A DNA stretch of 47,212 nt from the IMG/VR virus record IMGVR_UViG_3300009172_000010, positions 1 through 47,212 of that record, one strand, 5' to 3'. Below the pieces are notes generated by a model, which did not search any database, was not told the DNA's origin, and saw only the letters and a list, made by a program, of their open reading frames with translations. The translations under genes and the position numbers were made by a program. Of this stretch, positions 18,561-35,916 are shown piece after piece. Origin of the DNA: a virus. Positions within the stretch are counted from its first letter, which is position 1; each line of letters starts with the position of its first letter.

Positions 18561-20122
18561 TGGCAAGATTAAGACAGCAGTTTCCGCAGAACTATGGCTC
18601 CTCGGGCAACATAAACACCGAGTTCGAGCAAGTCGTCAGATACGTCAATGCGGCGGAATTTGGCGGCAATACGCTTGCCGAATTACTGGCAAAGATTTTC
18701 GATGCAAATGGTGTCTGGGACGGTCCTATCGAGCTGCGCAAGGACTCTTCTGCTGGCCTACAGTATCGCATCGGTGAGTACACCGACACAATTACCGGAT
18801 GGAAAGCCCTCGCCACGCTCGCAGAGATTCGAGGCGAAAAGGGAGAAGACTTTGGTACAATCGGTGCCCCTATTATACATAGCAGGCAGGATACAGTATC
18901 GACTAACGCGCAAACCGTTTTCGATTATGCCCACGACACGACAGACACGATCCTCGTTTACGTCAACGGTGTCTTAAAGCGGCCAGGTGCGACATACGAT
19001 TATCAGACAAGCCCGACAGCCGGTACATCCAACGCTGGCGCTGTCACATTTAATGCTGGCCAGACGACTAGCGCAGTTGCTTCTTTTTACAAAATTAGGG
19101 CAACTGCGGTCACTGGGTTTTTGCGTAGCGATGCTGTTACAACCGCGTCTCAAACCGTTTTCGCATTTGCGCATACAGAAGACACCCAACTCCAAGTTTT
19201 CAAGAACGGAATACTCCAGCGCGAAGGTGGTACAAACGACTACACCGGACAACCAGCTAATAACACCGTCACATTTGTGGTCGCCGTTCCCAGCGGTAAC
19301 ACGATAACAATTATCACGGTCGAAAACACGAGCACGACGGCGGCAACTGGCATGATGTTCGAGTCGAATTTTGCGAATACCGCAACCGGCCTGATCCAGT
19401 TTGCCAAGATTGGGATAGCGGATGGCGAAATCACTCAGGCAAAGGTCGCTGACCTTGTCACTGGCCTTGGCGCAAAAGCAAAATTGACAGTCTCGTCATC
19501 AACACCGTCTAGCCCAGCAAGCGGCGATCTGTGGGTGGACACCTCGATCTCTCCAAACCAATTGAAATTTTATGATGGGACACAGTTTTTACGGACAAGC
19601 CCTGAATCCTCGCTTCCGACTTTCTCTTCCTCGGACAGCGCCAAAGTTGTTCGGGTCAACGGCACAGGGACGGCCCTCGAATATGTCGCGGCATCTACGT
19701 TTCAGTCTGGGCTTCTCCAGTCAACCCAACGCGGCGCGGCCAATGGTGTTGCCAGCCTGGACAGCAGCGGTAAATTGCCAGCGGCACAGTTGCCATCGAT
19801 CTTGTCAACAGAGAGCTTCTATAATTTAACTGCCGCGCCAACGAACAGCGATACTTACATCAAGCGTATTTTCAAACAAAAAATACAAATCACCGGCGCA
19901 GCCGTTTACACATCGACAGGCACGATAGATGTTCAAGTGCTTCTTAACGGGGTGGCTTCGGGTTCGACCCTTACCGCCAGTTCGGCTGGCGTAACGTCCA
20001 CGTTTTCGACAGCAATCGAGGCAGACGCTACGACAAATTCAATCAGGGTCGGCTTTCAAACGACGAACAATGCCAGCTCTGCAAACTTGGAGGTTGTTTT
20101 TGCGGTCCAGGTGGTGAGCTAA
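18560..20122 (+). CDS. Tail protein with N-terminal particle-binding domain (520 aa)
   Basis: Start at 18560 (MARLRQQFPQNYGSSGNINT) is coupled to the previous stop (TAATG). Residues 1-50 (EFEQVVRYVNAAEFGGNTLA) are a short anchor type I know from marine podoviruses. Two related beta modules follow: TVFDYAHDTTDTILVYVNGV and TVFAFAHTEDTQLQVFKNGI, each resembling T7-like fibre modules. It then has SGDLWVDTSISPNQLKFYDG and a beta-rich C-terminus. Probably a nozzle-attached fibre or appendage. No enzyme motif. Confidence 0.8.
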   Translation: MARLRQQFPQNYGSSGNINTEFEQVVRYVNAAEFGGNTLAELLAKIFDANGVWDGPIELRKDSSAGLQYRIGEYTDTITGWKALATLAEIRGEKGEDFGTIGAPIIHSRQDTVSTNAQTVFDYAHDTTDTILVYVNGVLKRPGATYDYQTSPTAGTSNAGAVTFNAGQTTSAVASFYKIRATAVTGFLRSDAVTTASQTVFAFAHTEDTQLQVFKNGILQREGGTNDYTGQPANNTVTFVVAVPSGNTITIITVENTSTTAATGMMFESNFANTATGLIQFAKIGIADGEITQAKVADLVTGLGAKAKLTVSSSTPSSPASGDLWVDTSISPNQLKFYDGTQFLRTSPESSLPTFSSSDSAKVVRVNGTGTALEYVAASTFQSGLLQSTQRGAANGVASLDSSGKLPAAQLPSILSTESFYNLTAAPTNSDTYIKRIFKQKIQITGAAVYTSTGTIDVQVLLNGVASGSTLTASSAGVTSTFSTAIEADATTNSIRVGFQTTNNASSANLEVVFAVQVVS

Positions 20123-20577
20123 TGACGATACGTGCGGCAATGCTTGGTGACATCAGCAAGGTTGTGGACCTTGGTGAGATTATGCACGGCGAGAGCGTCT
20201 TCTCGAAGTACGATTTCGACAAGTATTACCTACATCACTACACCAAGAATGCCATAGAAAACCCTGATAGGTTTGGTGTTTTTGTGAATGATGTCGACGA
20301 TGAAATAATTGGCATGATTTGCGGTTTTATAACGCCTCATTATTTCTCGCCAGAGGTCAAAGTTGCGCACGATTTTTTGACATACGTCCATCCATCAAAG
20401 CGTGGCGGCACGGCAGCGGTCAGGCTTGTAAAACGATACGAAGACTGGGCCAAAGCCGTCGGCGCGAAAGAAGTTAAGTTTGGCATATCTGCGGGTATCG
20501 ACAACGAGCGGGCCGAAAAGTTTTACAGCGGTCTCGGGTATGTCCGATCTGCCACCATTTTTATGAAAGAGTTTTGA
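20122..20577 (+). CDS. GNAT-family N-acetyltransferase (151 aa)
   Basis: MTIRAAMLGDISKVVDLGEI is the usual GNAT start. Acetyl-CoA site: a beta4 strand (VAHDFLTYVHPSKRGGTAAV) containing the R-G-G-T-A loop equivalent of Q/RxxGxG/A, then the alpha3 helix. End: ERAEKFYSGLGYVRSATIFM, the common C-terminal GNAT pattern with AxxFYxxxGY. GNATs occur between tail genes in many marine phages. The substrate is unknown; it may modify virion or host proteins. Coupled to the tail gene by TAATG. Confidence 0.9.
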   Translation: MTIRAAMLGDISKVVDLGEIMHGESVFSKYDFDKYYLHHYTKNAIENPDRFGVFVNDVDDEIIGMICGFITPHYFSPEVKVAHDFLTYVHPSKRGGTAAVRLVKRYEDWAKAVGAKEVKFGISAGIDNERAEKFYSGLGYVRSATIFMKEF

Positions 20578-20578
20578 T

Positions 20579-22504
20579 ATGTGTGGAAGTTCTTCTCCTC
20601 CTCCTCCTCCGCCGCCGCCAGATTATAGCAATCAAATCAGTTCTGCTAAGGACGATATGCGGGCCTACAACACCAAACTTGCCAATGAATATAATCAATC
20701 CGTCAGCGACTGGAACACGGGTGCCGGGGGATACGACCCTACGAAAAGTAAAGGCAATGTGAACCCGTATGCGGCAGCGTTTGGCGGCTCTTCCGGTGTC
20801 GACCAAGGCGTCATGGATTCATTTCTCGGCGGCTCGGACGGTTTCCAAATGGAAGACCTCAATAGTAGCGCACAGAAGGATGCTCTCAGAAATCAGATCA
20901 GTGGTGCTCGTTCCGGCATGGACTACCTGGACAGTCTGAATTTTGATACCGACATCCCGGAGTTTAGGACGCACACAAGCGGGGATGGGTGGTCCACCAG
21001 CGTGTACGATACACCAACCTTAAATCGTCCCAACCAAGGGATGGTAGATGATTATCGACGAAAATATTCTGACGCTCTTTCCCAATTAGAAAGCGTAAAC
21101 AAGCAAAGGGGAGCCGAAGAAAAACGAATCACTGACTTCCGCTCTGGCCTGATGAATAACCTCAGTGAAGCAGACGTCGGTCTTGGCCAAATGACGATTG
21201 CCGATCTGTCTGACATGGACAGACTAGACCGTGATATGGCACGAGGGCAGAACCAGGTAGACCAGTTTTCGTCTACGATCCTAGACCAAATGTACCCCGA
21301 AGGTTTTACTGAAGTATCTTCCAGGCGAAGTGGTCTTTCAGACCGCTTAGGTACGTTACGTGGCGAGCGAACGGCAGAAGAAAACCGCATATCAGATTTT
21401 GAATCGGGCATCTTAAATTTTGTCGACAAAGGCTTAACCGACTTTGGAACCTACGACATAACGAACCTGCCCGAGCTTGAGGCAATGCGTGATTCTATCG
21501 AGGAGCAAAATCGCGGCATTGGTCGGTTTAGCTCTCTATTAGGTACGGACTTCTTGGACGAACAGAGTGAGCTTTCAGGATTGGGTGGCGACGTCCAAGA
21601 CATGCTTGCTAAACGAGATGCTGAAGAGCGGCGAATTAAACGTGATGCAGGAGCCTTTGGAAACACCGCCGAATATCTGAGGGATGCTGCCCTCGGGGGC
21701 AACCCATATAGCCAGAAGTCACTGGATGCGATGGCAACTGGCATCAGTGATTTGCGCGGCGATATGGACAGCTACGAAAGCCTGCTCGACACCGACTTCA
21801 CGGGAACTGCTGGCGCACTTGGGGAAGCGGACACAGCTCTCCAAGGGTTTATCGATGAGCGCAAGACAAGCATCGACGACCTGATGAGCCGTGCGACAGA
21901 TGCAAATGTTGGCTTGGAGGACATCGCTCTTCACGACGAAGACGCAATGAAAAAAATGATCTCTGATAACAGAGGCATCACCGGGGATTTATCTGCTTAT
22001 ACAGGCGGTCGAGTTGGAGGCATCCAGGATGTAATCGGCGGCAACGTAACTGCTGTAGAGAAGAAAATAGGGGAGTTGGGCGAGATGAGGGGCGATCTTG
22101 AAGTCCAAGCACAAACATTGCGTGACAAATTGAAAGAAATGACTTTCCGTTCGAGCGGTGACTTTGCTGACCCCCAATCCGAATACGACACGCTCAAGAC
22201 CCAAATCGATCTGTACAATGCCCAGCAGGCATTGGACGAGTTGGCTGAGATGATGGACCAACTAACCACGGAACGTAGCCGGGTGAGCACAGATGAAGCA
22301 CAGACAGCGGCTCGGGAAAAAGAAGCGCAAGCCCGAATAAACAACTCGATGGTCGGCGGCGTTCCGCAATTCGGTTCCTCCGGCGCATCAGGCCAACTGA
22401 CAGCAGAGCAGTACATGTCTCTCCTCCAAAGCGGCGGTAAAGAAGAAGAGGAGGTCACTACTTCAGGAGGCAACCCATTCTCGCTTAACTTTGGAGCTGC
22501 ATAA
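20579..22504 (+). CDS. Internal virion (ejection) protein, polyproline N-terminus (641 aa)
   Basis: Begins MCGSSSPPPPPPPPDYSNQI, a Cys-Gly/Pro-rich start I know from podovirus proteins at the head of the ejection block. The body is long helices with coiled coils, including two related segments (EEKRITDFRSGLMNN and EENRISDFESGILNF) about 90 residues apart, which suggest internal duplication. C-terminus is Gly/Ser-rich. The Cys at position 2 without a signal peptide is not a lipobox. Followed by two more helical ejection proteins, coupled by TAATG. Confidence 0.8.
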   Translation: MCGSSSPPPPPPPPDYSNQISSAKDDMRAYNTKLANEYNQSVSDWNTGAGGYDPTKSKGNVNPYAAAFGGSSGVDQGVMDSFLGGSDGFQMEDLNSSAQKDALRNQISGARSGMDYLDSLNFDTDIPEFRTHTSGDGWSTSVYDTPTLNRPNQGMVDDYRRKYSDALSQLESVNKQRGAEEKRITDFRSGLMNNLSEADVGLGQMTIADLSDMDRLDRDMARGQNQVDQFSSTILDQMYPEGFTEVSSRRSGLSDRLGTLRGERTAEENRISDFESGILNFVDKGLTDFGTYDITNLPELEAMRDSIEEQNRGIGRFSSLLGTDFLDEQSELSGLGGDVQDMLAKRDAEERRIKRDAGAFGNTAEYLRDAALGGNPYSQKSLDAMATGISDLRGDMDSYESLLDTDFTGTAGALGEADTALQGFIDERKTSIDDLMSRATDANVGLEDIALHDEDAMKKMISDNRGITGDLSAYTGGRVGGIQDVIGGNVTAVEKKIGELGEMRGDLEVQAQTLRDKLKEMTFRSSGDFADPQSEYDTLKTQIDLYNAQQALDELAEMMDQLTTERSRVSTDEAQTAAREKEAQARINNSMVGGVPQFGSSGASGQLTAEQYMSLLQSGGKEEEEVTTSGGNPFSLNFGAA

Positions 22505-24084
22505 TGTGGGGTCAAATAATAGGGGCTGGCGTTAGCTTCATGGGGCAAAGGGCCGCTGCGAAGCAGCATCAAGAAAGCCTTGCCCTACAGCGATGGTCGA
22601 TGGAGCGCCAGGTCGAGATGCAAAACCAGCAGCTCAATCTGCAACGCGAGAATATGTCTATGGCCCATGCCGCAGACAACGAAAGGCGGGCAGAGAATGA
22701 ATACACCCGTTATCAAGAAATACTTAACCGGGGCATCAAGGCTCGTGAACGTGATGAAGAGAAAAAACAAATCGATAAATACAGGAATCAAAAAGCAGAA
22801 GAACAGCGCTATGCCATCGACAGGCAGCTAAAGACTGACCGCGCTGCTGCAAGGTCGAGAGAGCTTCAGCTCCGGGAGTTCCTGCGCAATCAGCAGATTA
22901 CAAAGGACGAGAGGCAGGAAGCGTTGGATGAGCTTGCCATCGTGAAAGAGATTGCGAGTGGAGAGCGAGACGACGACAAGCGTCAATACCTGAATGAGCG
23001 CGCCAAGAAAGAAGCGGAACGCGAATTTTCAACGAAGCAATACCTCGAAGCAAAGAATCAAGCGAGTGTGGAAAGAGGCGAAGGTTTGCAGCGGAATGAC
23101 ATGATCCTGGCCCAGATAGGTAGGATGGAATCTGGTTTACAGCAGGCTGCCCTTGGTATCCAAGAGGTTCCTGACATCGCTACTTTCTCGCCGACCGACA
23201 TTCAAGGCGAAATAGACAGCCGCACAGACGAGTATATGATCGACGTTGATCGTGCAGCCGACCGTGTCGCCAGCGTTGGCGAGGCAGACTTAATCCGTAC
23301 TGGCATGGACGCCTCAACAACTGGGAGCAAAAAACGCGCAGAAATCGCAAGCCAACTTTCGCGAGAATACCAGAATGCACGCAACCGTGCATATGACGAC
23401 AGTCTGAACTACATCCAGGGCAGACAAAAAATAAGTCAGTCTGACGCCGGGTCGATTGCAGACATGCGCCAGCAGAGACTATCCGAAGTCGCAGGGATTG
23501 AGGGCATCGGGCTAGACCCATTGCTTCGCATGACAGACGCCAGGTCTGCGCTAACCGCGCCAGCGAGTTATCTCAGTCAAGTTGGCAGCGGTGTTTACGA
23601 CCGCCGCCTTGTATCAGGCGGGGGTTATCGAGGGCCGCTTGCAGTCGGCAGTGGTGTCTACGACAAAAGCGGAACGATAGGTTCGGGGCTTGGCGGCAAC
23701 GCAACCCTGCCGACTGCGGCTTACTATCAAAATCCCCAGACTGCCGTCTTTGGCACGTACCCGCAAACTATCGGCACCGCCAGTAACTACCTACAAAACG
23801 CCGGGAGCATGGGCTCCACGCTGCTAAACAGCGGAGACAGACTAATGGGTTACGCAAACACGGGTGCCACTAATTCAGCCAAAGCCCTCTCGGGTGCAAG
23901 CGCGGGATTTGGCGGCTCGCTGAAAAAACTATCAAACGACTGGGACTTTGAAGACCTGTCTAAAGGATGGAACAATCTGTTCGGAACTGGTGGGAACGAT
24001 CTGAACTCGGGCGGGAGCAACTTAATGAGTGATTACGATTCATCATACCAATCCTCATTCTGGGGATCGAGTGATTACGCATGA
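22504..24084 (+). CDS. Internal virion protein, T7 gp14-like type (526 aa)
   Basis: MWGQIIGAGVSFMGQRAAAK is a short hydrophobic/Gly-rich start typical of the smallest ejection protein of T7-like phages, which inserts in the outer membrane. Residues 20-190 form a very long charged coiled coil (MERQVEMQNQQLNLQRENMS). The C-terminal third is Gly/Ser/Tyr-rich (GSGVYDRRL, GSGVYDKSG repeats). Assignment is by position, first segment and composition. The next gene overlaps by ATGA. Confidence 0.78.
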   Translation: MWGQIIGAGVSFMGQRAAAKQHQESLALQRWSMERQVEMQNQQLNLQRENMSMAHAADNERRAENEYTRYQEILNRGIKARERDEEKKQIDKYRNQKAEEQRYAIDRQLKTDRAAARSRELQLREFLRNQQITKDERQEALDELAIVKEIASGERDDDKRQYLNERAKKEAEREFSTKQYLEAKNQASVERGEGLQRNDMILAQIGRMESGLQQAALGIQEVPDIATFSPTDIQGEIDSRTDEYMIDVDRAADRVASVGEADLIRTGMDASTTGSKKRAEIASQLSREYQNARNRAYDDSLNYIQGRQKISQSDAGSIADMRQQRLSEVAGIEGIGLDPLLRMTDARSALTAPASYLSQVGSGVYDRRLVSGGGYRGPLAVGSGVYDKSGTIGSGLGGNATLPTAAYYQNPQTAVFGTYPQTIGTASNYLQNAGSMGSTLLNSGDRLMGYANTGATNSAKALSGASAGFGGSLKKLSNDWDFEDLSKGWNNLFGTGGNDLNSGGSNLMSDYDSSYQSSFWGSSDYA

Positions 24085-26000
24085 TAGATTACTCAGCATT
24101 TTCGCAAGGGTGGAACCAGGCGGACGATAAAGACCGGAAGAGCCGCCTCGACAACCTAGACGCTTGGCGGAAATTCAAGACGGGCAACCCGTATGCAAAT
24201 TTTCAACAACTATCAGAGTACCGCGACGCGCTGACTGGAGGCCGCAACTATCTTGGCGATGTCCTGCCGAACAACGATTTACTGCAAAGCGTTGCGGACT
24301 TGAATGCCGAAAATAAAGGCCAAGCGGAGCTGGAGAAAAACTACGCCAACATGACCAAGCAGGCGTCGCTTTTAGGAACGATGGATGCAGACATTGACGA
24401 AGCTCTTCTTGCGTCAGGTGGCAAAAAGCTTGTTGACGCTGCCAATAATTTTGTTGGTCGTTTCGAGAACATAGCGAACACACCGAATTTGATGCGGCGC
24501 ATCACGTCAAGGTTCAACGAACCTGCGTATAAAGCCCTCGTAATGGAGAGAACACAGAAAAATCTACCCAGAGCTGCGGCGTTCCTCAAGGATAACCCCG
24601 TTGCAACTTCGAGCGATATCGAACAGCACTTTGGTCTACCTCCGGCAATCGCCGAGGGGCTCCACAAGCAGGCCATAAAGATGAACCAACGTGAAACGAC
24701 TGAATGGTACAGCAAGAACCGAGAAAGACTTATTAAGTCTGCGCTGGAATATGGAAAAGAAGGCGAAGACGTAACGCCATGGCTAACAAGACAGGCGGAA
24801 TTGCTCGGCGAAGACTTAGATGTGAATAGTGCCGAATTTCAATCTTTACTAAACCTCGTCAAAGCTCGATCCGACAGAGCGAATAGAGAGAAAGAGGAGA
24901 AAATGGGTGAGGCTGTCTCCGCAGCAGCAACTAGAGTTCGGGGTGTTTTAAACAGCAGCGATGCGGTTAAGGCGCTTGTTAGGCTAAACGATACTGATGG
25001 ACTCAGAGCATTAGTCGAGGAGACACTTAGTGACGTTCCATCTCATGTTAAGAAGAGCATGGAGGAAAATAATACGTGGGAACCGTGGGTTGACGGAATT
25101 ATAAATAGTTCCTTTGCAAAGGGGGCAGCGGCACAAAGTCAAACAATAGATGCGGCAAACGAAAAATCGGCTGAAGAAAATGCGGCGAGGCGTGTGAAAT
25201 TACGAGAACGTAACATAAAAGATGCACGCGAATATTATCTCGGGTTTGAGGGTGCTAAGAGCCGTGGTGCGGACGAAAAAGATAGGGTATGGCTACCGGA
25301 TGCCACCGAGCAATTGGCAAGAACATTTTACATGGACGCAAGTGCTTTCGGCGTCTTAAACAAGGCGTGGTATAACATATCCGCAGATGACGCGACCATG
25401 GAGACATTAGTCAAAACCGGACGCGAGGCATTGGAGAATGCCGGTACGTCTCACGCCGACACGATGCATGACCACTTGGCATCCCAAGTAGAGATAGGAT
25501 CAGGTCGCTGGATTAAGACCCAGCCAGTCGAAATGTTTCTTGGCACTATGGAAAAAGCCGTCAAGAAGGATGACGGTGAGTATCAGCAATTTCAGAATAA
25601 CATATTCCGCTCTACCGGCAGCAACCAAAAAAAGATCGGCGCGCTAATGCGACTGGGCGCTCAACTTACTATGAAAGCGAAAAGATATAAACAGGAATTA
25701 GACGTCGCAGAGAGGAGCGCCATGGGCGACGACAATTGGATAAAGGTAGAAAAAGATGGGGCTCAATGGGATAGGAAACGGGCCCAAAAACTAACCGAGA
25801 ATCTTGATAAAAAACTTGCTGAATACAAACAGGAAATAATGGACGCAATTCGCGTACTGAAGGTAGAAGAAGAGGCAAAAAACGCAGACAGGCTGGGTAA
25901 ATCTTCACTAAAGAGAACCCCCGCCCCGGCAGGTAATATCCCCGCCGATGTGAAAAAAATAGTAGACGGGTATGCCGCGTCTTACAGCGGTAACAAGTAG
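24081..26000 (+). CDS. Internal virion protein, T7 gp15-like position (639 aa)
   Basis: Starts MIDYSAFSQGWNQADDKDRK. Almost wholly helical and highly charged, with PVATSSDIEQHFGLPPAIAE in the first third and a basic C-terminus. No enzymatic motif found. Position between the gp14-like gene and the giant protein matches the T7 order gp14-gp15-gp16. It is presumably ejected with DNA to form part of a periplasmic channel, by analogy only. Confidence 0.75.
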   Translation: MIDYSAFSQGWNQADDKDRKSRLDNLDAWRKFKTGNPYANFQQLSEYRDALTGGRNYLGDVLPNNDLLQSVADLNAENKGQAELEKNYANMTKQASLLGTMDADIDEALLASGGKKLVDAANNFVGRFENIANTPNLMRRITSRFNEPAYKALVMERTQKNLPRAAAFLKDNPVATSSDIEQHFGLPPAIAEGLHKQAIKMNQRETTEWYSKNRERLIKSALEYGKEGEDVTPWLTRQAELLGEDLDVNSAEFQSLLNLVKARSDRANREKEEKMGEAVSAAATRVRGVLNSSDAVKALVRLNDTDGLRALVEETLSDVPSHVKKSMEENNTWEPWVDGIINSSFAKGAAAQSQTIDAANEKSAEENAARRVKLRERNIKDAREYYLGFEGAKSRGADEKDRVWLPDATEQLARTFYMDASAFGVLNKAWYNISADDATMETLVKTGREALENAGTSHADTMHDHLASQVEIGSGRWIKTQPVEMFLGTMEKAVKKDDGEYQQFQNNIFRSTGSNQKKIGALMRLGAQLTMKAKRYKQELDVAERSAMGDDNWIKVEKDGAQWDRKRAQKLTENLDKKLAEYKQEIMDAIRVLKVEEEAKNADRLGKSSLKRTPAPAGNIPADVKKIVDGYAASYSGNK

Positions 26001-26061: not shown

Positions 26062-29000
26062 ATGAGCTACAAGCAACAAACTGGTGGATTGAACATTGAT
26101 CTCGAAGAGGCCCTAGATTCTGGGGGCGCCTCTGGAGATTATACCTCTGTAATAAATACAAACGACGCGCTTCGCGATCCACGTTTCTTATTGGATTTAC
26201 GCGAGCACTATGATGAGACTGGCGGGCGCGGAATTTCCGACGAGCAGCTCATTGAAAAATTCTATCGCGACAAAGTCTGGGCTGACTTCAACACCTTCAG
26301 CGCGGTATCTGATGCTGCATCAGCCTACGGCATGGGTGAAGACGCGCGCAAGCGCGCGAAGCGTATCGAAACAGTCTACCGTCAACTACCTATGCCCTGG
26401 CAGGAGGGTGGTCGAGGCATGGCGTCGGCAACCGGAGATGTCGCCGGAGCGGTCATCATGGACCCGGTCAATCTCATACCCGGCTTCGCTGCCGGGAAGG
26501 CGGCGTTGACAGCAGGTCGGGCTGCAATGATTGCTGGCAAAAGCGCCCCTATCTTGCGCGGCGTGGGTAAAGGTGCTGCCGTTGGTGCTGGTTCCGAGGC
26601 GCTAATCTCTGGCGGCCAAGCCGCTGTCCACGACACGGCCCTCCAAGCCCGCGACGTGCAGCTTGGCCTGCAAGATGAAATAGACCTCGGACGAACCGCA
26701 CTGGCCACTACAGTTGGCACTGTAGCTGGCGGCGGTATTGGTGGCCTTATCGGTGCAGGCGCTGGTGCTATAGGCGCAAAGCGAGGCGTTTCACAGGTAG
26801 AAAATGCAATACGCCTTGGCCTGACGCCTGAACAAATTGACAATATGACCCCCGCCGATTGGGCGGAGTTTACTAAAGCAACCCAAGACACCGCTGCCTT
26901 ACTTCCCGACGAGCAAGACACCGCTGGCCTAATTCCCGACGAGACTGTCGAGGCACCTCCCGAAGTTGTTCCCGATGCCCCGCCAGACAATCGCACTGTC
27001 TTAGAGCAGCAATTCGACCTGATGGGCGACGAGCTTGACCGGAAACTTGGGTTAGAGCGCCAAGCAGCAGCAGCTTTAAAGGCTGATGGGGGAACAGCGG
27101 AGCAGCTTGAAGAAGCAAGCGACAACCTGCGCCGTTACAACGTCTTTAAAAATCTTAGCAAACGGCTCCGCGCCAGTGAGAAGGAGATAGACGTACTCCT
27201 TCAGTCATCAGATTTGAAGAAACAGAAGCTGGGGCAGCAGCGCCAAGCACTTCTTGACGATGCAATCACCGATCTTCTGGCCGCGACGAGGAAAGACGAC
27301 GGCACTATCGACGTATCCGTACTAAACCGGAAGGTCGATGAGGCAGTAGGCACTTCGACAGAAGCTCCCGCACCCACGACAGAAGCCACGACAGAAGCTG
27401 CGCCGGGGAATGTCCCCGAAGCAGAAGCGCCTGCGTCTGCGCCTGAAGCTCCGACTGCCGAGGTAGTTGATGTAAATTATTCCACTCCTACGGTGGCGAG
27501 TTCCACTGAATCCGCACTCGCTCTTGTGGGAAAATCAACTCCAGACATCCAGCGTTACATCGACGAAGGAAAAGTTCAGCTCGGTAGGTCAGGTAAGTTT
27601 ACAAACAAAAGTTTTAAGCAGTTAAAGACTGCTCTCGATTCAGAAGAACCAGCCGCAGCCCCCCAGGCCGATGCGCCTGCATCCACCCGAACGTGGGAAG
27701 ATGTCGAGAAGGACGTCGAGAACGGCGTGATTAACCTGGACGAAGCAGGAACGCAGCTTGAAGCGATGGGCATAGACCCAGCGGATTTGGGCGGCGAAAT
27801 GATGACGGCCCGCGAATACTTCGAGGCGATCAGGGCCGCAGAAATTGAGAGCGATGCCACCCCCGTATTTTCTCCAATAGCGCTAAAGCAGCGACAACAA
27901 GCCCTGATAAAAGGCACCGATTGGCGCAACATTACCGGCACAGGTGCGAAGGGAAAAATAACTAAAAAGGACATCACCAACGCTTCGGTAGACCCGGCGT
28001 ACACGAAGTCCGTGATGGACGACCTAGACACCATCTTACCTGAAGCGTCTGTAATCGGTGATGAACTGACGCGGTCGGAGATGCGTAATCTTGTCCGCGC
28101 GCTGGCTAATGACCCCGAGTTTTCTTCAGACGCCGACGACGTCCTCGCGATGTTTGATTATCATCATGCTCGCTCTCTCGACGAGGTTCTCTCCGATGTA
28201 AAATTCGGTCGATTAACCAAAGAAGATGCGGCCTTAGAAATAAAACAATCCGGTCGGCAACCGAAAAATTCTGAAGGAAAGTCTGTCTCAAAAAAAGAAT
28301 GGGAGGCACGACTCAATAGGCAAAAACTAGACAGCATATCAAACGAAATCGTCCAGTGGACGCAAAGCGAAATTAAATTGATGCGGGACTTGTCCCGAAA
28401 AATAATGGAGGACGGCGCTACATCCAAGGTAGATGCCGACAGCCAAGCCCAATTGCAGGTCTTGCAGCGCAAACTCAAAGGCAAGACAGCGGTAAGCTCC
28501 GGCGATCTTAGCTCTAGCGCGAAGCGAGTCGCTGAGACAAAGAACATTGAAGGGGCAGGGCGCGACCCTAACACAGGGAAAATACAAGGCATCCTCCGCG
28601 CAGGGATACCGACCAGCGAAGGTCGAACGATAAACACTTCCGGTTTGGATCAGGGAGAAGAGAAATTCATAAGCACCGCTAGTTTCGGAGCGCAGGAGGC
28701 ATTGCTCAGGGCGAAGCAGAACGGTGTAATTACAGAATTTTCTCCAGCGCAATCAGTCCGTCAGGTAATGACGATGTCGGGGAAGAAAGACTTCCCGGCA
28801 GGCAGTGCGCTATTTGCTGACCCACGTACAAACAGGATTTATGACAGCAGAGAGACAGCACTTACCGCTCGGGGAGAGCTAACATCGAAGCCTTCTCCAG
28901 TGTCGACTTCAGCCCCCGGCGCACCCTCTGAACTCTTGGCGTTAATCCGGGCTGCAATTGCGAGCAACGATGGCGCAGCTTTAAAGAGGCTTATCAAAAG

Positions 29001-32000
29001 ACAGAAGCAACCAGATCAAAATATCACTCCTGATACCCTAACAGACCCCCTTCCTAATACCCTAACAGCCCCCCGCGCGACGGAAGACACACCTCTCGTA
29101 TATGGCGACCGTGTCTTGGTCGTGCAGAGAGTAGGCAACGAGGCTGACATCCGCCTCGCTGGCCCATCACAGCGGGTAGACGGGAAGGGCGTACAGAATC
29201 TAATCGGCGCTAACCAAAAGCCAGAAAACTGGAGTGTTCGCTACGCATTGGCCAATGAGGCCGAGGGCGTTCGGAACGCGGCAGACAGGCGTGAACTCTG
29301 GAATAGCGCGAACACGGTGGAGCAGCCATCTGGCACAGAAGATGCACCAGGAATGCGTAGGTTCGTAGGCGATGCGACTGGTATCGGCTCACCTATGCCC
29401 GCGCATGAGTTCGACGAGCTTAGTCTTAGCAATTTAAAGACCAAAGGTCTCCTCCTAAAAGGCGAGCCCGTCGATGTCCAAACATTCTTGGATAACCTCA
29501 TCTCGGAAGTAGAATTTATCAACCCGGATGGGCGAAGACTGGGACTCAAATCTGGACAGGATTTACGGCGACAGATTGTTAGTCTTGAGAAATTACCCTA
29601 CGGGAAGCAGCGGTCTAATCACCGACAGATTGCTGAATGGCTATCTGGACTACACGCCATTGAGCGAGATATTTCGCCGGGTGGCGTGGTAAGAAATACG
29701 GTAGATCGTGCGGAATCAATTCGTCAGGTGGAGGCTATATTCACGCGGTTCTCGCCGGATGAAGTAGCCATTGCTGGTCGAATAATCTCCAGACTTGGCG
29801 GTGATCCGTCAGTTGGCCCTGTTCTTAGAGAGGCCCCTAACAGCCAGTACAGCGCCTATTCAGCCGGTCCTGATGACAACTTCATTCGTCTGTCTTCCAC
29901 GTTAAATGGTTCTACAGAACGGGTATCCTCCCCTGCAACAGAAAACCTCCTGCATGAGCTAGGCCACTGGTCCTATCGTAATATACTTACGCCAGAGGAC
30001 AGGTCGGAGTTTTGGCGAACAGCCGAGAATAGTATGTACCGAGGAGGTGAGGATGACGCTGGGCTCGTTATGCCAGAATCTCCGCCTCACATAAATAATC
30101 AAGTCAATCCTCAAGAATATTTCGCAAATCAGTTCGCGCACTGGGCGATGAAAAATCGCACCGATGGTGTCTTTGCGACCGAAACTTACTGGCGAAAGAT
30201 CAATCGGTATGTTGAGCAAATTTTTAACTGGTTCGTTAAGCGCCAACCCGTCGACAGCGACTTAGTCCCTCTCTTCTCAAAAATCCTTCCAGAAGAAGAT
30301 CGCCAGGTTTATCGTCTGGGAGTAGACGATCCGGTGGGGGATTTCCAGACGGCTATCGTAAAGCATAGCCTCAACATTCGCCTCGCAAGGGATAGCATTA
30401 ATAGCGCGATAAGAGAAGGTAACGATGACGCTATCATCAATGCCTTTTCGCAGGCTCAAAGCGCTCTAGCAGCGGCAGCGCCAGGGCGTGTAATTCCCGG
30501 CCAAGCCACAAATGCTGGCGCAACTTTCAGCGCGCTCCGCCCTCTCGAAAAAATGATCCGAGACCGCTTCGGCGACATCAACCAGGTCATGTCGGGTAAG
30601 GTGGATGGTCCTGTCGAGGCCAACACTGCCGCGCCAGAATTTGGAACTAGCATCTTGGGCGATGCCCAAGAACAGGCCAGCGTGCTGCAAGAATTGTGGT
30701 TAGAGGGCCACGCTGGCGGCTTCACACCGCTTGTCCGTCCGGTCGACCCCGGCGAGGAGTCCAAATTTGCGGGCAACACCTCAATTGAGGCCCTCTTTAA
30801 TATGATGGATCGTACTCTTGAGGCCGCCTTTGCAAGCGAGGGTAAAAAATTAGCAGGCGTTCCCGCCTCGATACGCTCGACGGAGACAGCCACACCGTCG
30901 GCGACAGGTAAGGCCGCTGTCGAGCGGGTAAAGAAAGGGACTAAAGCAACCGAACGCTCGGCTATACAAACCGCCAAGACACCGCGCAAAAAACGCAAAT
31001 CAAGCGGGAAGACATCTGCGGCGGAGCCGAGTGATGCTGCCGAGATTCGGTCAGCAAGTACCAAAGAGCTGGTTGACCTTTACCGCCGGGAGGCTGGCAC
31101 CGACAGGGGCCAACAGATTGCGGAGGTTATTCTGGCCCGGAGGAAAGCGGAGCCGCTGCCTGCAAAATATATAAGTCGCCCGCAGGAGATAAAATCTGCG
31201 ACAAAGTCTGATCTCTCTACAATGCTGGCCAGCGCCCTCGACGCTGCCGACAGCAAAAAGATAGACCAAATTCTTTTCGAGGTTCAACGTCGTAGCCACA
31301 ACAAAGGGAACAAAGGCATCCCTGGGTTTAAGCCTGTCTACCGCGAGGTAGGTGCGGCAATAGAGCGCGAGTTGGCCGACCATGCGGGCGTCCAGACAAA
31401 CGACGGAATACCAGCCAACGCGCGTGGCCAGGTCCGGTCGATGTTGTCGTACCTGACGCACCGCGATCCTGAAGTTCAGACGACGATGCGGACAATGACC
31501 TACAGGATGGTCAACCTACTCGGCAAGTCTCAACGCGGTGGCATCGAAGACACCAACTTTATGACAATGGGTGACATCGCCCGGATGTCTGGAGAAGACC
31601 TATCCGGTCTGGAGACAGGGGCCTTTATGGACTTCAGGGGACCGGAGTTTGGTAGTCTGCGGAAAGACCTGAGACGTCTGTCGGTCGGTCTTAACAAAGG
31701 TAAATCGACCCCCTTCGATGTAGTCCACGAGGTTAGCCATATGCTGACCCGATCTGGTCTCCTGCCAGATCGCGAGATCGATGCTATCCGTGAATCTTGG
31801 CGGTCTCTTGATATCAATGACCCCCTCAAAAAACAGACCATCGACACGTACACGAGCAAGTACGCCAACCGTGAATACACAGACATTGAAATGGACAACG
31901 TCCTCGCAGACGAATGGTTCGCGGAGAGCTTCACACGATATCTATCCGAGCGCGTAGCGAAGGGCGACATAACGCAAGCCGCTCTGACGGGTAACATGAA

Positions 32001-35000
32001 CTCGGTGGCGCTGCGAGGCACTGTCAGCCGCGCCATCGACAGGCTTGTCGAGTATGTAAGCTATGTCTTAAACGGACTGATCGGCAGGACGGACATCAAG
32101 CAGACCTTTAGGCGGATTACATTTTCCGCAGACATGCTTGAAGATGTGGGCCGCGCACCAATGTCAGCGCGTCGGCTCGCCGTCGGGCCAGAGAATGCGG
32201 CGGCTTACTCAGCAGACCGATACATGGCATCGCCACGAAATAAGAAGGCGCACATATCTAGGTTCGTCGGCAACGGTCTTGGATACGACGTGGCGAGCGA
32301 CACGCCCGTCGTTTGGTATCACGCAACGCCGGTCGCTCATAAATTTGATGCGAACACGAATCCAGATGAAGTTTTTAATGGGTCGGTGAATGGAAACTAC
32401 GGACCTGGCCAGTACCTCTCTCTTGATCCTGGCTCGACCCGAGTTTACGGGGATGCCCCGACAGCATCGGCAATCCTGCGTGCCATAGATGAAGCAGACA
32501 TCGGGGTTGAACTCAAGACAGAGCTATCCATTGACGCGCTTTACGTTTCTTCGATACGGAAAGAAATGGCGGCTCTGCGTCGCGAATACTCGATGCTCCG
32601 AGAGAACCCGTCGGGAGACGAGGTGTCGGATTTCCTGAACGGAGAACAACTCGATAGGCTGAAGGCAGAGATCGAGTCAATGGCAGAGATTGAGGTCGGG
32701 ATTAACACGAGATTTGCACGGCATGACATTGCAAGTAATCCTGGGGTGATACCCTTTTATATTAGGGCTCTCAAACCAGCAGATTTCAGTGTCAAAAAAT
32801 TCTACGAACCGGACGACCAGTTTGTTCGGTTGCTGCAAACCAATCTTCGAGACGCCGGAATAGTAAATGAAAAAGAAGTTTCTCGATTTGCGAACAGAAC
32901 GTCGGAGGGCGTAGATGGCAGGCAATTATACCAAGCCTACGTCAGTGCTTTCCGTGGTGATGGGGGCACATCAGATGGAGCGGCCAAAGAACTAGCCACT
33001 ATCTCTCTCGTAGACAACGGCTACGACAGTCTGAAAACGACGCACTACAATAGTGTCGACAGTGTAGATGTCGGTGAGGCTCTGCCTGACGGTCGGCCCT
33101 ATGGGGCAGACATTCGAGGACACGAGACAGTTGTTCTTTTCGATGAGACCCAGTCGAAAAATATCGACGCTGAGTTTTTCGACCAGTCCGACCCGAGGAT
33201 GCACTATCGCGAAGAAGGTCGCCGCAACGACTTCAGTAGTCTCAACGCCACGATTGCCGATGCTGTTATGGACGGCGCAAGCCCCAAAGATATGAACCTC
33301 GACGCGCTTGTCGAAGGTCTTGAGCAGGTCGGTGCATCCAGGCTAGAGGCAGATGCGCTTCGCTCGACAGCAGCGGGCCGACCATTAAGCGCGCCGGAGG
33401 AGCAGGCTATTCGCAAACTGTCTCCGCTCCGTCATCTTCAGGAGCAGTCTCAACGGATGGAAGGGATGGGCCTGAGATGGCTAGGAAGCTGGTATAAAGA
33501 CCACTTCCCAGATATCAACCAGCGGTTTGCCAAGACATACATGCCAATCCGTAATAAATTACGGAAGTTGCCGGATTCTGATGGCAGGGTCCGCGCTTGG
33601 GCTCGGGCAAGCAGCGGCGGTGTCGGACAAAAGCAACCAAAATCATATACGCGCATCGTCAAGGCATTGCGGCGTGGTGAAGGGTCGGCGCAGCACAAGG
33701 CGCTGTCTCCTCAAGAGCGTGAGGTTTTTACTATGGTCCGGTCGGCCATGGAAACCGAACGCGGCAACATGGTTAAGGCCGGGATGAGCGTCGGCTACCG
33801 GGAGAACTATGTTCCACAGGTCTGGAACAAAGCCTTTATCCAAAAAAATCGTGTCGAGTTTCTTCAGGATATGTCTGATTATTTCAAGCGTGAGAAGACG
33901 CGGCAAGTTCCGCCCGTGCTTGCAGATGATGCCGAAGCTATTGCCTTTGCCGAACGGATGTATCTCACACTAGCCGACGATAGTGCCGACGGAGTTCTGT
34001 CTCCCATTCATGGGTCAACGCGTAACCCCAAATTTGAGCACGCCGATTTTTCCCGCATGATCGAACTCGATCAGGACAAGTTCTCGCTCGATGCGATGGA
34101 AAAATATCTGGAAAGCGACCTCGAATTTCTTCTGACGAAGTACCTTGAGGGATCAACCCGACGCCTTAGTCACACCGAGAAACTCGGTCTGAACAGCCAC
34201 GGCGTATATGACTACATGAAGGTAATACACGGAGGCCAAGACGGCATCGCGAGTCTTTTGAGCACCAACCGCGAGTTTAGGAAAGACGTCCGGTTCGTGG
34301 GGCCTGATGGATATCCTGAATCTGCTGTGGTTATTGATACAACAAAAATGCCTTTTGTTGGGAAGGAGGCCGAGTCACAGGTTTTTTCGCGTAATCTTAT
34401 CGAGACGCACGCGACCCAAGGTAGTGGGGCAGCGAGAAAAATGCTCGACGAAGTCGCCCCAACCAGCGTGGATGGGGCTATTCCACCGACGTACCAACGT
34501 CGAGCTGACGCCATTGTTGCAGCTCTCGACGACTTCAAGGGTCAAGCAAGTCCTAAAATTATTGATGACCAATATAACTTCATCGACAACGCGATGCGCG
34601 TTGCTCGACGCCAAGCATTAACATCCGGCGGCGGGCAAGCCGCGCATAAAGCAAGTCGAGCCTTGAAGAATTTCAACTCGGTGACGCTACTGAGCTACAC
34701 CGCGCTGACGTCAATACCCGATCTGGCTCTGCCGATTGTTAGGAGCGGTAGCTTCAAATCGTGGGCCAAAGGATTGTCTCGCTGGGCATCCGACCCCGAA
34801 TACAGACAGATGCTTGGGAACATAGGCGTCGCGATGGAGAACATTATCCACGACCGAATGACATATATGTACGGCGCAGCCGACGGCAAGACAACACACG
34901 CATTCTTCAATGCGACCATGCTTACGCCGTGGACGGATATGAACCGCCAGATCGCTGGCGCGACAGCCATCGAGGCTTTCGCGACAATGCAGCGGAAGGC

Positions 35001-35916
35001 AATCAAATCACATGACCCAGAGAAATCTCTCGTTGACCAGTCGCGCGCGTACAAGACAGCGTATCGGTTTCTCAAGCGATACGGCCTAGAAGAGTTTTCG
35101 CCGCACGGGAAGAGGATTGGTGAGACATTGTCTGACGCGCGTCTGCTCGATGGTGAAATGGCAAGTGATGAGCTTCGTCGAGGCATCATAAAGTTTGCAG
35201 ACGAGAGCATTTTTACTCCAAATCCAAACGACATTCCGCTTTGGGCGCAGACACCCTTTGGCAGCCTTGCTTTCCAACTGAAATCTTTCCCGCTGATGAT
35301 GACACGGCTGACCGGCTATACGCTGTCTGAGTTTAAGAAGGGCAATGTGGCACCGCTTGCCTACCTCACGACAATCGGTCCAGCGCTAGGCGCTGGGTCG
35401 CTCGCGATCAAAGACGTTGTTCAAATGCGCGGAGGCGACGATGGAACCGATGCGGAAGTCCGCAAGCGCAACATATTGAAATCGCTTGGCTACGACGAGA
35501 AGCAGCACGGGAACGTGGACGACTTCCTGGGTTGGTATGTGACAGGGGCTGGCGCGATAGGGTGGGGCGGCCTTGCTTCCGCCCTCGCTTCTGAAGCCTA
35601 CGACGCGTCGGGTGGCGGGAACTACAGCAAGAACCGCCTTGCCTCATGGATATTTGGTCCGACGTTTGGTCTGATTAACCCCGTTGTGGATGTATTATCA
35701 GGAGTGAAAAATGCTGTGGTCGGGGGTAATGCCAGCAACGCTAAACAGCGAACAGGGGTGCGCGCAGTAGCAGGTCGACTCCCTGTTGTTGGAGGGAACA
35801 GAGCCGTCAGAGAAGGATTAGTTGATTCAATTGCCGGTGAGACACCAGAAGAATCAAGCGGTTGGGGTGGTTGGGGTGGTAGTGGGAACAGCGGATGGGG
35901 CGGCGGATGGAAATGA
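26062..35916 (+). CDS. Giant ejection/polyvalent protein with two HEXXH sites and an ART-like domain (3284 aa)
   Basis: Largest gene of the window, last in the ejection block (T7 gp16 position). Residues about 130-240 are Gly/Ala-rich hydrophobic segments (MDPVNLIPGFAAGKAALTAG; VGTVAGGGIGGLIGAGAGAI), possible membrane-penetrating parts. Low-complexity linkers follow (for instance Ala/Pro/Glu-rich 430-475, Lys-rich near 1630). Zincin 1: HELGH at 1298-1302, third ligand candidate E1352 in NPQEYFANQF. Zincin 2: HEVSH at 1889-1893 with DEWFAESF (E1951/E1955). ADP-ribosyltransferase-like: VVWYHAT (H2087), GPGQY (Y2118), GHETVVLFDE (E2355). Helical C-terminal 900 residues end in a Gly/Trp tail (GWGGWGGSGNSGWGGGWK). 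It fits the polyvalent proteins that phages inject; activities are untested. No transglycosylase or RNA polymerase motif was seen. Confidence 0.85.
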   Translation: MSYKQQTGGLNIDLEEALDSGGASGDYTSVINTNDALRDPRFLLDLREHYDETGGRGISDEQLIEKFYRDKVWADFNTFSAVSDAASAYGMGEDARKRAKRIETVYRQLPMPWQEGGRGMASATGDVAGAVIMDPVNLIPGFAAGKAALTAGRAAMIAGKSAPILRGVGKGAAVGAGSEALISGGQAAVHDTALQARDVQLGLQDEIDLGRTALATTVGTVAGGGIGGLIGAGAGAIGAKRGVSQVENAIRLGLTPEQIDNMTPADWAEFTKATQDTAALLPDEQDTAGLIPDETVEAPPEVVPDAPPDNRTVLEQQFDLMGDELDRKLGLERQAAAALKADGGTAEQLEEASDNLRRYNVFKNLSKRLRASEKEIDVLLQSSDLKKQKLGQQRQALLDDAITDLLAATRKDDGTIDVSVLNRKVDEAVGTSTEAPAPTTEATTEAAPGNVPEAEAPASAPEAPTAEVVDVNYSTPTVASSTESALALVGKSTPDIQRYIDEGKVQLGRSGKFTNKSFKQLKTALDSEEPAAAPQADAPASTRTWEDVEKDVENGVINLDEAGTQLEAMGIDPADLGGEMMTAREYFEAIRAAEIESDATPVFSPIALKQRQQALIKGTDWRNITGTGAKGKITKKDITNASVDPAYTKSVMDDLDTILPEASVIGDELTRSEMRNLVRALANDPEFSSDADDVLAMFDYHHARSLDEVLSDVKFGRLTKEDAALEIKQSGRQPKNSEGKSVSKKEWEARLNRQKLDSISNEIVQWTQSEIKLMRDLSRKIMEDGATSKVDADSQAQLQVLQRKLKGKTAVSSGDLSSSAKRVAETKNIEGAGRDPNTGKIQGILRAGIPTSEGRTINTSGLDQGEEKFISTASFGAQEALLRAKQNGVITEFSPAQSVRQVMTMSGKKDFPAGSALFADPRTNRIYDSRETALTARGELTSKPSPVSTSAPGAPSELLALIRAAIASNDGAALKRLIKRQKQPDQNITPDTLTDPLPNTLTAPRATEDTPLVYGDRVLVVQRVGNEADIRLAGPSQRVDGKGVQNLIGANQKPENWSVRYALANEAEGVRNAADRRELWNSANTVEQPSGTEDAPGMRRFVGDATGIGSPMPAHEFDELSLSNLKTKGLLLKGEPVDVQTFLDNLISEVEFINPDGRRLGLKSGQDLRRQIVSLEKLPYGKQRSNHRQIAEWLSGLHAIERDISPGGVVRNTVDRAESIRQVEAIFTRFSPDEVAIAGRIISRLGGDPSVGPVLREAPNSQYSAYSAGPDDNFIRLSSTLNGSTERVSSPATENLLHELGHWSYRNILTPEDRSEFWRTAENSMYRGGEDDAGLVMPESPPHINNQVNPQEYFANQFAHWAMKNRTDGVFATETYWRKINRYVEQIFNWFVKRQPVDSDLVPLFSKILPEEDRQVYRLGVDDPVGDFQTAIVKHSLNIRLARDSINSAIREGNDDAIINAFSQAQSALAAAAPGRVIPGQATNAGATFSALRPLEKMIRDRFGDINQVMSGKVDGPVEANTAAPEFGTSILGDAQEQASVLQELWLEGHAGGFTPLVRPVDPGEESKFAGNTSIEALFNMMDRTLEAAFASEGKKLAGVPASIRSTETATPSATGKAAVERVKKGTKATERSAIQTAKTPRKKRKSSGKTSAAEPSDAAEIRSASTKELVDLYRREAGTDRGQQIAEVILARRKAEPLPAKYISRPQEIKSATKSDLSTMLASALDAADSKKIDQILFEVQRRSHNKGNKGIPGFKPVYREVGAAIERELADHAGVQTNDGIPANARGQVRSMLSYLTHRDPEVQTTMRTMTYRMVNLLGKSQRGGIEDTNFMTMGDIARMSGEDLSGLETGAFMDFRGPEFGSLRKDLRRLSVGLNKGKSTPFDVVHEVSHMLTRSGLLPDREIDAIRESWRSLDINDPLKKQTIDTYTSKYANREYTDIEMDNVLADEWFAESFTRYLSERVAKGDITQAALTGNMNSVALRGTVSRAIDRLVEYVSYVLNGLIGRTDIKQTFRRITFSADMLEDVGRAPMSARRLAVGPENAAAYSADRYMASPRNKKAHISRFVGNGLGYDVASDTPVVWYHATPVAHKFDANTNPDEVFNGSVNGNYGPGQYLSLDPGSTRVYGDAPTASAILRAIDEADIGVELKTELSIDALYVSSIRKEMAALRREYSMLRENPSGDEVSDFLNGEQLDRLKAEIESMAEIEVGINTRFARHDIASNPGVIPFYIRALKPADFSVKKFYEPDDQFVRLLQTNLRDAGIVNEKEVSRFANRTSEGVDGRQLYQAYVSAFRGDGGTSDGAAKELATISLVDNGYDSLKTTHYNSVDSVDVGEALPDGRPYGADIRGHETVVLFDETQSKNIDAEFFDQSDPRMHYREEGRRNDFSSLNATIADAVMDGASPKDMNLDALVEGLEQVGASRLEADALRSTAAGRPLSAPEEQAIRKLSPLRHLQEQSQRMEGMGLRWLGSWYKDHFPDINQRFAKTYMPIRNKLRKLPDSDGRVRAWARASSGGVGQKQPKSYTRIVKALRRGEGSAQHKALSPQEREVFTMVRSAMETERGNMVKAGMSVGYRENYVPQVWNKAFIQKNRVEFLQDMSDYFKREKTRQVPPVLADDAEAIAFAERMYLTLADDSADGVLSPIHGSTRNPKFEHADFSRMIELDQDKFSLDAMEKYLESDLEFLLTKYLEGSTRRLSHTEKLGLNSHGVYDYMKVIHGGQDGIASLLSTNREFRKDVRFVGPDGYPESAVVIDTTKMPFVGKEAESQVFSRNLIETHATQGSGAARKMLDEVAPTSVDGAIPPTYQRRADAIVAALDDFKGQASPKIIDDQYNFIDNAMRVARRQALTSGGGQAAHKASRALKNFNSVTLLSYTALTSIPDLALPIVRSGSFKSWAKGLSRWASDPEYRQMLGNIGVAMENIIHDRMTYMYGAADGKTTHAFFNATMLTPWTDMNRQIAGATAIEAFATMQRKAIKSHDPEKSLVDQSRAYKTAYRFLKRYGLEEFSPHGKRIGETLSDARLLDGEMASDELRRGIIKFADESIFTPNPNDIPLWAQTPFGSLAFQLKSFPLMMTRLTGYTLSEFKKGNVAPLAYLTTIGPALGAGSLAIKDVVQMRGGDDGTDAEVRKRNILKSLGYDEKQHGNVDDFLGWYVTGAGAIGWGGLASALASEAYDASGGGNYSKNRLASWIFGPTFGLINPVVDVLSGVKNAVVGGNASNAKQRTGVRAVAGRLPVVGGNRAVREGLVDSIAGETPEESSGWGGWGGSGNSGWGGGWK

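What the first reader, a model, noticed from the sequence alone, without database searches (positions are those of the whole stretch)
26062..35916. 3284-residue injected protein carrying an ADP-ribosyltransferase-like domain
Near residues 2087-2360 the order YHA(T), GxGQY and (G)HETVVLFDE matches ART-type polyvalent phage domains. In a virion ejection protein this implies that an effector modifying host proteins enters with the DNA. The rest of the protein is mostly undescribed sequence.
Basis: partly seen in the sequence, partly recalled or inferred. Interest (0 to 1): 0.7.

Follow-up and report, generated by a model that had tools for sequence, protein, structure and literature searches.

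The report
ART-like domain in phage ejection protein
A very large protein that a marine phage probably packs in its head and injects with its DNA carries a domain of a known phage family of predicted ADP-ribosyltransferases; this is a new, divergent member of a known kind, and its enzyme activity has not been shown.

Summary
ORF 26062-35916 encodes 3284 aa with YHAT (2086-2089), GPGQY (2114-2118) and GHETVVLFDE (2353-2362) in that order. The window protein alone matches no ART profile, but 19 of 21 aligned relatives match Pfam ART-PolyVal, best E 1.1e-11. In 37 aligned domains H2087 and Y2118 never vary; position 2355 is E/D in 28 and Q/K/T/M/S in 9, the 9 needing two changes on the tree. AlphaFold2 gives a confident model (pLDDT 92.7) with H, Y and E on strands. 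Its best solved match is chain B of the cyanophage A4 pre-ejectosome (Z 10.5), whose sequence has its own YHGT...GSGTYF. The N-terminus matches pelagiphage 'internal virion protein D', so packaging and injection are plausible but inferred. Polyvalent ART proteins were described in 2017 (PMC5512222). Best reading: an ART-PolyVal domain inside a giant ejection protein of CRP-810-like phages, probably an injected host-protein modifier. Main rival: the domain has become a structural piece of the ejectosome, at least in the clade lacking the acid. New member of a known kind.

The parts
26062..35916 (+). 3284-aa giant ejection-type protein gene
   Evidence: relatives with complete ORFs of 3157-4070 aa
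26128..26886 (+). N-terminal region (res. 23-275), similar to internal virion protein D of CRP-810 (gp36) and of pelagiphages
   Evidence: CRP-810 47% identity E 3e-36; HTVC105P E 8e-9; 20 records in all
27901..27975 (+). sub-threshold match to E3_binding (peripheral subunit-binding domain), res. 614-638
   Evidence: E 3e-4 and 8e-5, 21.4-23.2 bits against cut-off 23.7; 4 of 14 full-length members match, best E 1.2e-6
29674..30336 (+). region with first HExxH (HELGH 1298-1302) and downstream E1352; possible metallopeptidase
   Evidence: H1298 29, E1299 25, H1302 25, E1352 25 of 33 (2 of the 33 do not reach here); no informative Pfam match
31219..32181 (+). region with second HExxH (HEVSH 1889-1893) and downstream E1951; possible metallopeptidase
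   Evidence: H1889 27, E1890 29, H1893 27, E1951 28 of 33; all-helical AF2 model pLDDT 81.2; no clear fold match
32224..33216 (+). ART-PolyVal-like domain, res. 2055-2385
32320..32322 (+). H2087, strand 1 of the model
   Evidence: 37 of 37; strand 30-35 of the model
32413..32415 (+). Y2118, strand 2 of the model
   Evidence: 37 of 37; strand 62-66 of the model
32506..32721 (+). two long helices (res. 2149-2220) inserted between the H/Y half and the E half
   Evidence: helices 95-127 and 133-166; PF18760 matches several relatives in two pieces around it
33124..33126 (+). E2355, predicted third active-site position
   Evidence: D 15, E 13, Q 4, K 2, T, M, S 1 each of 37; strand 295-305 of the model
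33217..35913 (+). C-terminal region (res. 2386-3284), the best conserved part; similar to proteins of other phages
   Evidence: (55 records)
22504..26000 (+). two upstream ORFs (526 and 639 aa) in the place of other core proteins, no family match
   Evidence: position only

Best explanation
The gene encodes a giant ejection (internal virion) protein of a CRP-810-like marine phage. It has an N-terminal region shared with pelagiphage internal virion protein D, a conserved C-terminal region shared with other phages, and between them an ADP-ribosyltransferase domain of the ART-PolyVal family with H2087, Y2118 and E2355 as the predicted active site. Proposed mechanism: the protein is packed in the head, enters the cell with or ahead of the DNA, and its middle part reaches the cytoplasm, where the ART domain uses NAD to modify host proteins early in infection, as T4 Alt does. 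Shown here: the ORF, the domain's family by way of relatives, the conserved residues, a confident model. Inferred: packaging, injection, topology, NAD use, target. My own odds: ART-family domain about 0.9; in the virion about 0.85; active modifier in this phage about 0.5.
For: PF18760 matched by 19 of 21 aligned domains, 9 of 14 full-length members and, among 16 records, over its cut-off in the prototype Roseovarius podovirus and in relative L018. H and Y 37 of 37, acid 28 of 37 at a mean column identity of 32%. Window plus L005 and L006 form a supported clade that keeps the acid. AF2 model pLDDT 92.7, pTM 0.87. Best solved match is cyanophage A4 ejectosome protein 9k3a_B, Z 10.5, rmsd 3.9, 171 aligned; that chain is A4 gp27, which has YHGT 1424, GSGTY 1444, DTTLVINPD 1586 (the YHGT is residues 1425-1428 in the printed LYHGT starting at 1424), and profile comparison aligns the first two motifs (E 7e-4). 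BFVD matches include one protein named large polyvalent and one named ART-PolyVal-like among the six at E 0.001 or better. N-terminal match to internal virion protein D. Precedent: ART in N4-like virion RNA polymerases.
Against: No profile matches the window protein itself. Foldseek gives no PDB match at E 0.001 or better, and no biochemically characterised ART appears in the rows shown. The acid is missing in 9 of 37. The ART region is less conserved than the C-terminus (0.26-0.39 against 0.37-0.54 mean identity per 100 residues). In A4 the domain sits in the assembled pre-ejectosome, which also fits a structural role. I found no virion proteomics or activity data for this phage.
Confidence: 0.6

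Rival explanations
1. Structural relic: an ART-fold domain that now serves only as a building block of the pre-ejectosome, with no NAD chemistry.
For: Acid missing in 9 of 37 and K in CRP-810; matching domain is resolved inside the assembled A4 pre-ejectosome; the A4 match to PF18760 is weak (E 0.0035); the domain carries a long inserted helical pair.
Against: H and Y 37 of 37; the window's own clade keeps the acid; E and D together make up 28 of 37.
Confidence: 0.3
2. ART-like domain acting on NAD itself, nucleic acid or a small molecule (NAD-consuming or counter-defence enzyme) and not on host proteins.
For: The ART superfamily in viruses includes a range of activities (passages of PMC9503650); nothing here identifies a target.
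Against: The authors who defined the family favour protein targets by kinship.
Confidence: 0.2
3. The resemblance to ART is spurious.
For: No profile match of the window sequence alone; no significant Foldseek PDB match.
Against: Relatives match PF18760 to E 1.1e-11; 0 of 20,000 shuffles; A4 and prototype alignments.
Confidence: 0.04

Closest known systems
ART-PolyVal (Pfam PF18760), Tox-ART-HYD2 clade; prototype Roseovarius Plymouth podovirus 1 vRNAP CBX87992.1 (PMC5512222)
   Same: H on strand 1, Y on strand 2, acid on a late strand; embedded in a giant late-gene phage protein that also bears HExxH motifs.
   Different: E in place of the published D; a long inserted helical pair; no match of this sequence alone to the profile; joined to an internal-virion-protein-D-like N-terminus; no RNA polymerase family match seen.
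Cyanophage A4 (Anabaena phage A-4L) gp27, chain B of PDB 9k3a
   Same: Domain with YHGT...GxGxY...acid-strand in a protein resolved in a podophage pre-ejectosome.
   Different: 1717 aa; sequence similarity to the window protein seen only at the ART motifs.
Roseobacter phage CRP-810 gp36-gp35-gp34 (OR671924)
   Same: Collinear relative from the N-terminus to the C-terminus.
   Different: Annotated as three overlapping genes; K in place of E2355; no 'ADP-ribosyl' in the main text of its paper (find in PMC11288001).
Phage T4 Alt
   Same: Virion-delivered ART as a model of action (PMC5512222 section 9).
   Different: Different ART clade (R-S-E); myovirus protein not part of a polyvalent protein.

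Membership tests
ART-PolyVal / Tox-ART-HYD2 | Match to profile PF18760 | tested here: inconclusive
   Window alone: none. Aligned domains: 19 of 21 at E up to 10; 9 of 14 full-length at E up to 0.1; 11 of 16 records at E up to 1, 2 of 16 over the cut-off.
ART-PolyVal / Tox-ART-HYD2 | Histidine in strand 1 | tested here: met
   H2087, model strand 30-35; 37 of 37.
ART-PolyVal / Tox-ART-HYD2 | Tyrosine in strand 2 | tested here: met
   Y2118, model strand 62-66; 37 of 37.
ART-PolyVal / Tox-ART-HYD2 | Acid (published: aspartate) in strand 5 | tested here: met
   E2355 in the window (glutamate, not aspartate), on model strand 295-305; D/E in 28 of 37, not in 9.
ART-PolyVal / Tox-ART-HYD2 | ART fold | tested here: inconclusive
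   Model matches 9k3a_B and BFVD proteins incl. one ART-PolyVal-like; no characterised ART in the PDB rows shown.
ART-PolyVal / Tox-ART-HYD2 | NAD-dependent ADP-ribosylation | not testable with these tools
   Needs biochemistry.
Podophage ejection protein (internal virion protein D class) | Sequence similarity to annotated members | tested here: met
   20 records, 18 of them pelagiphages, most annotated internal virion protein D.
Podophage ejection protein (internal virion protein D class) | Late structural gene position | tested here: met
   Capsid and tail genes upstream, holin and endolysin downstream.
Podophage ejection protein (internal virion protein D class) | Presence in virion and ejection | not testable with these tools
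   Inferred only.
Phage polyvalent protein | Several enzymatic domains in one polypeptide (ART plus zincin-like peptidase) | tested here: inconclusive
   Two HExxH plus downstream E, each intact in most of 33; no peptidase family or fold match; second region models as all-helical.
N4-like virion RNA polymerase | vRNAP module | not tested
   No such family appeared in Pfam or PHROGs scans, but polymerase motifs were not examined.

The most novel reading that the evidence does not exclude
The ejectosome is itself the effector: an active ART sits in the giant protein that conducts the DNA into the cytoplasm, so every particle delivers several copies of a host-modifying enzyme at the entry site, and a clade that kept H and Y but lost the acid has changed its chemistry and not merely decayed.
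Probability: 0.3. Interest if true: 0.7.

Novelty: new member of a known kind. Interest (0 to 1): 0.42.

Why it matters
If active, it would extend virion-delivered ADP-ribosylation (known for T4 Alt, predicted for N4-like phages) to a marine phage family with a cultured member, CRP-810, in which it can be tested. The match to a solved pre-ejectosome chain ties the predicted polyvalent ART domains to a physical place in the particle, and the natural split between acid-bearing and acid-lacking relatives gives a built-in comparison for whether the domain is enzyme or scaffold.

Tried and rejected
Bacterial genome contigs: 120 pattern hits, no relative by tblastn. PDB sequence searches with the domain, its profiles and the whole protein gave nothing or only unrelated weak matches. 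NCBIfam gave only weak chance-like matches. Foldseek on the ART model was filled by helical proteins, because of the inserted helices; characterised ARTs did not appear in the rows shown, which excludes nothing. The idea that the ART lies between two membrane-inserting ends, as in T7 gp16 (passages of PMC8954989), is only weakly suggested: mildly hydrophobic windows cluster at res. 119-240 and 2873-3222 with one between, but shuffled sequences give as many windows in all (mean 13 against 12). hhalign of the domain profile with A4 gp27 and with the prototype ART covered only the H/Y half; the alignment of the third position there is mine by eye, and agrees with the end of the structural alignment (model 315 with chain residue 1600) only if no gap lies in the last strand. 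In the prototype the second motif reads GLFF, without the tyrosine at the place I aligned. A search for peripheral subunit-binding domains in phages listed three unrelated papers.

Rows left out: the 37-row alignment A5 used 36 of the 64 IMG/VR loci found; the other 28 (L001, identical to the window, and 27 judged near-copies from similar identity, E-value and length in the tables, not by alignment) were dropped, and CRP-810 was left out of A5 because the structure tool takes no such locus. Full-length counts used 33 sequences, window included, 2 of which do not reach the first HExxH.

Papers: PMC5512222 (passages, sections 8 and 9); PMC9503650, PMC11654794, PMC11288001, PMC8954989, PMC12810830, PMC11699363 (passages only). 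The A4 structure paper (PNAS 2025) is not held; I saw only its citation, so whether its authors noted the ART-like domain is unknown to me. One search for 'ejection protein' with 'ADP-ribosyltransferase domain' listed one paper, on a prophage MuF toxin of Bacteroides.

Full report
The observation. The ORF at 26062-35916 is intact and encodes 3284 residues; the three motifs are at the residues named. The order is not a chance product of composition (0 of 20,000 shuffles, pattern written afterwards). The window is an IMG/VR virus record; an identical stretch occurs in a second IMG/VR contig (L001).

What family. The window sequence alone finds no ART profile. Its relatives do. From CRP-810 and one IMG/VR contig a first profile was made, which brought 20 loci, and a second scan brought 61, many shared with the first. 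Of 21 aligned members 19 match PF18760 ART-PolyVal at E up to 10, best E 1.1e-11. Over 16 whole records, 11 match at E up to 1 and 2 pass the cut-off: the prototype Roseovarius podovirus (E 1.5e-11) and relative L018; several relatives match in two pieces, front and back of the profile, with a gap between. The AF2 model explains the gap: two long helices, residues 2149-2220, lie between the H/Y half and the E half.

The active-site residues. In 37 domains H2087, Y2118 and D2322 never vary, at a mean column identity of 32%. Position 2355 is D in 15, E in 13, Q in 4, K in 2, and T, M, S in one each; CRP-810, not in that set, has K. On the tree the non-acid state needs two changes: one within a group of ten rows, eight without the acid and two with E, and one in L052; window, L005 and L006 form a supported clade that keeps the acid. 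Iyer et al. 2017 (PMC5512222, section 9 read) define the family by H in strand 1, Y in strand 2 and D in strand 5. In the model H2087, Y2118 and E2355 are in the strands at 30-35, 62-66 and 295-305.

Structure. The model is confident (pLDDT 92.7, pTM 0.87). Against BFVD six phage proteins match at E 0.001 or better (4.8e-8 to 7.2e-4); the first is named large polyvalent and the sixth ART-PolyVal-like, the others are unnamed or uncharacterised. Against the PDB Foldseek gives nothing at E 0.001, but the second aligner ranks chain B of 9k3a, the cyanophage A4 pre-ejectosome, first with Z 10.5, rmsd 3.9 over 171 residues; the next rows, Z 8.6 and less, are mostly helical proteins matched on the inserted helices. 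By the tool's own note Z up to about 13 can be a common arrangement for helical models, so the sequence matters: the chain is A4 gp27, and it carries LYHGT at 1424, GSGTY at 1444 and an acid-strand at 1586; profile comparison aligns the first two motifs (E 7e-4) and PF18760 itself matches there weakly (E 0.0035). I conclude that an ART-PolyVal-like domain has very probably been resolved inside a podophage ejectosome.

What protein. Residues 23-275 match internal virion protein D of CRP-810 and of pelagiphages (20 records). The C-terminal 900 residues, the best conserved part, match proteins of CRP-810 and other phages (55 records). Capsid and tail genes lie upstream and holin and endolysin downstream. 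Relatives with complete ORFs are 3157-4070 aa. This is an ejection-type protein far larger than the gp16-like proteins of 609-1337 aa reported in PMC8954989 (passages). Two HExxH motifs, each with a downstream glutamate, stand before the ART domain; of the sequences, 6 of 31 that reach it lack the first, 6 of 33 the second, none both. Zincin-like peptidases are the most common domains of polyvalent proteins and some are fused to ARTs (PMC5512222), but no peptidase family or fold was found here, so peptidase is only a motif-level guess.

How it probably works. By T4 Alt and by the published reasoning for polyvalent proteins, the domain would be packed, injected and would modify host proteins in the first minutes. 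Packaging, injection, cytoplasmic exposure, NAD use and target are all inferred. The main rival is a structural role, favoured by the missing acid in one group and by the folded domain in the A4 particle. I put an active modifier in this phage at about one half.

Novelty. Fusion of this ART family to giant virion proteins of short-tailed phages was described in 2017, so this is a new member of a known kind. What I did not find in print, in searches, is the domain in CRP-810-like phages or its link to the A4 ejectosome chain; the A4 paper itself was not available.

Noticed in passing
res. 614-638 (27901-27975): A sub-threshold peripheral subunit-binding (E3_binding) match, also seen in 4 of 14 full-length members (best E 1.2e-6); such domains bind 2-oxoacid dehydrogenase subunits in cells (recalled), so an injected copy would be curious.
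   Followed up: partly
res. 1298-1302 and 1889-1893 (29953-29967, 31726-31740): Two HExxH motifs; among the sequences, 6 lack the first, 6 lack the second and none lacks both. Few independent events, so possibly chance.
   Followed up: partly
L003:14048-23688: In CRP-810 the collinear relative is annotated as three overlapping genes in three different frames (gp36, gp35, gp34), whereas the IMG/VR relatives with complete ORFs have one ORF; real splitting or sequencing frameshifts.
   Followed up: no
20122-20577: A GNAT-type acetyltransferase gene (PHROG 1249, E 4.5e-31) sits among the structural genes, as CRP-810 gp40 does.
   Followed up: no
res. 1776-1822 (31387-31527): A strongly conserved stretch before the second HExxH (G1776, H1800-R-D, R1815, N1818 invariant in 21) with no known family.
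   Followed up: no
46717-46791: A tRNA-Thr (GGT) gene near the right end of the record.
   Followed up: no
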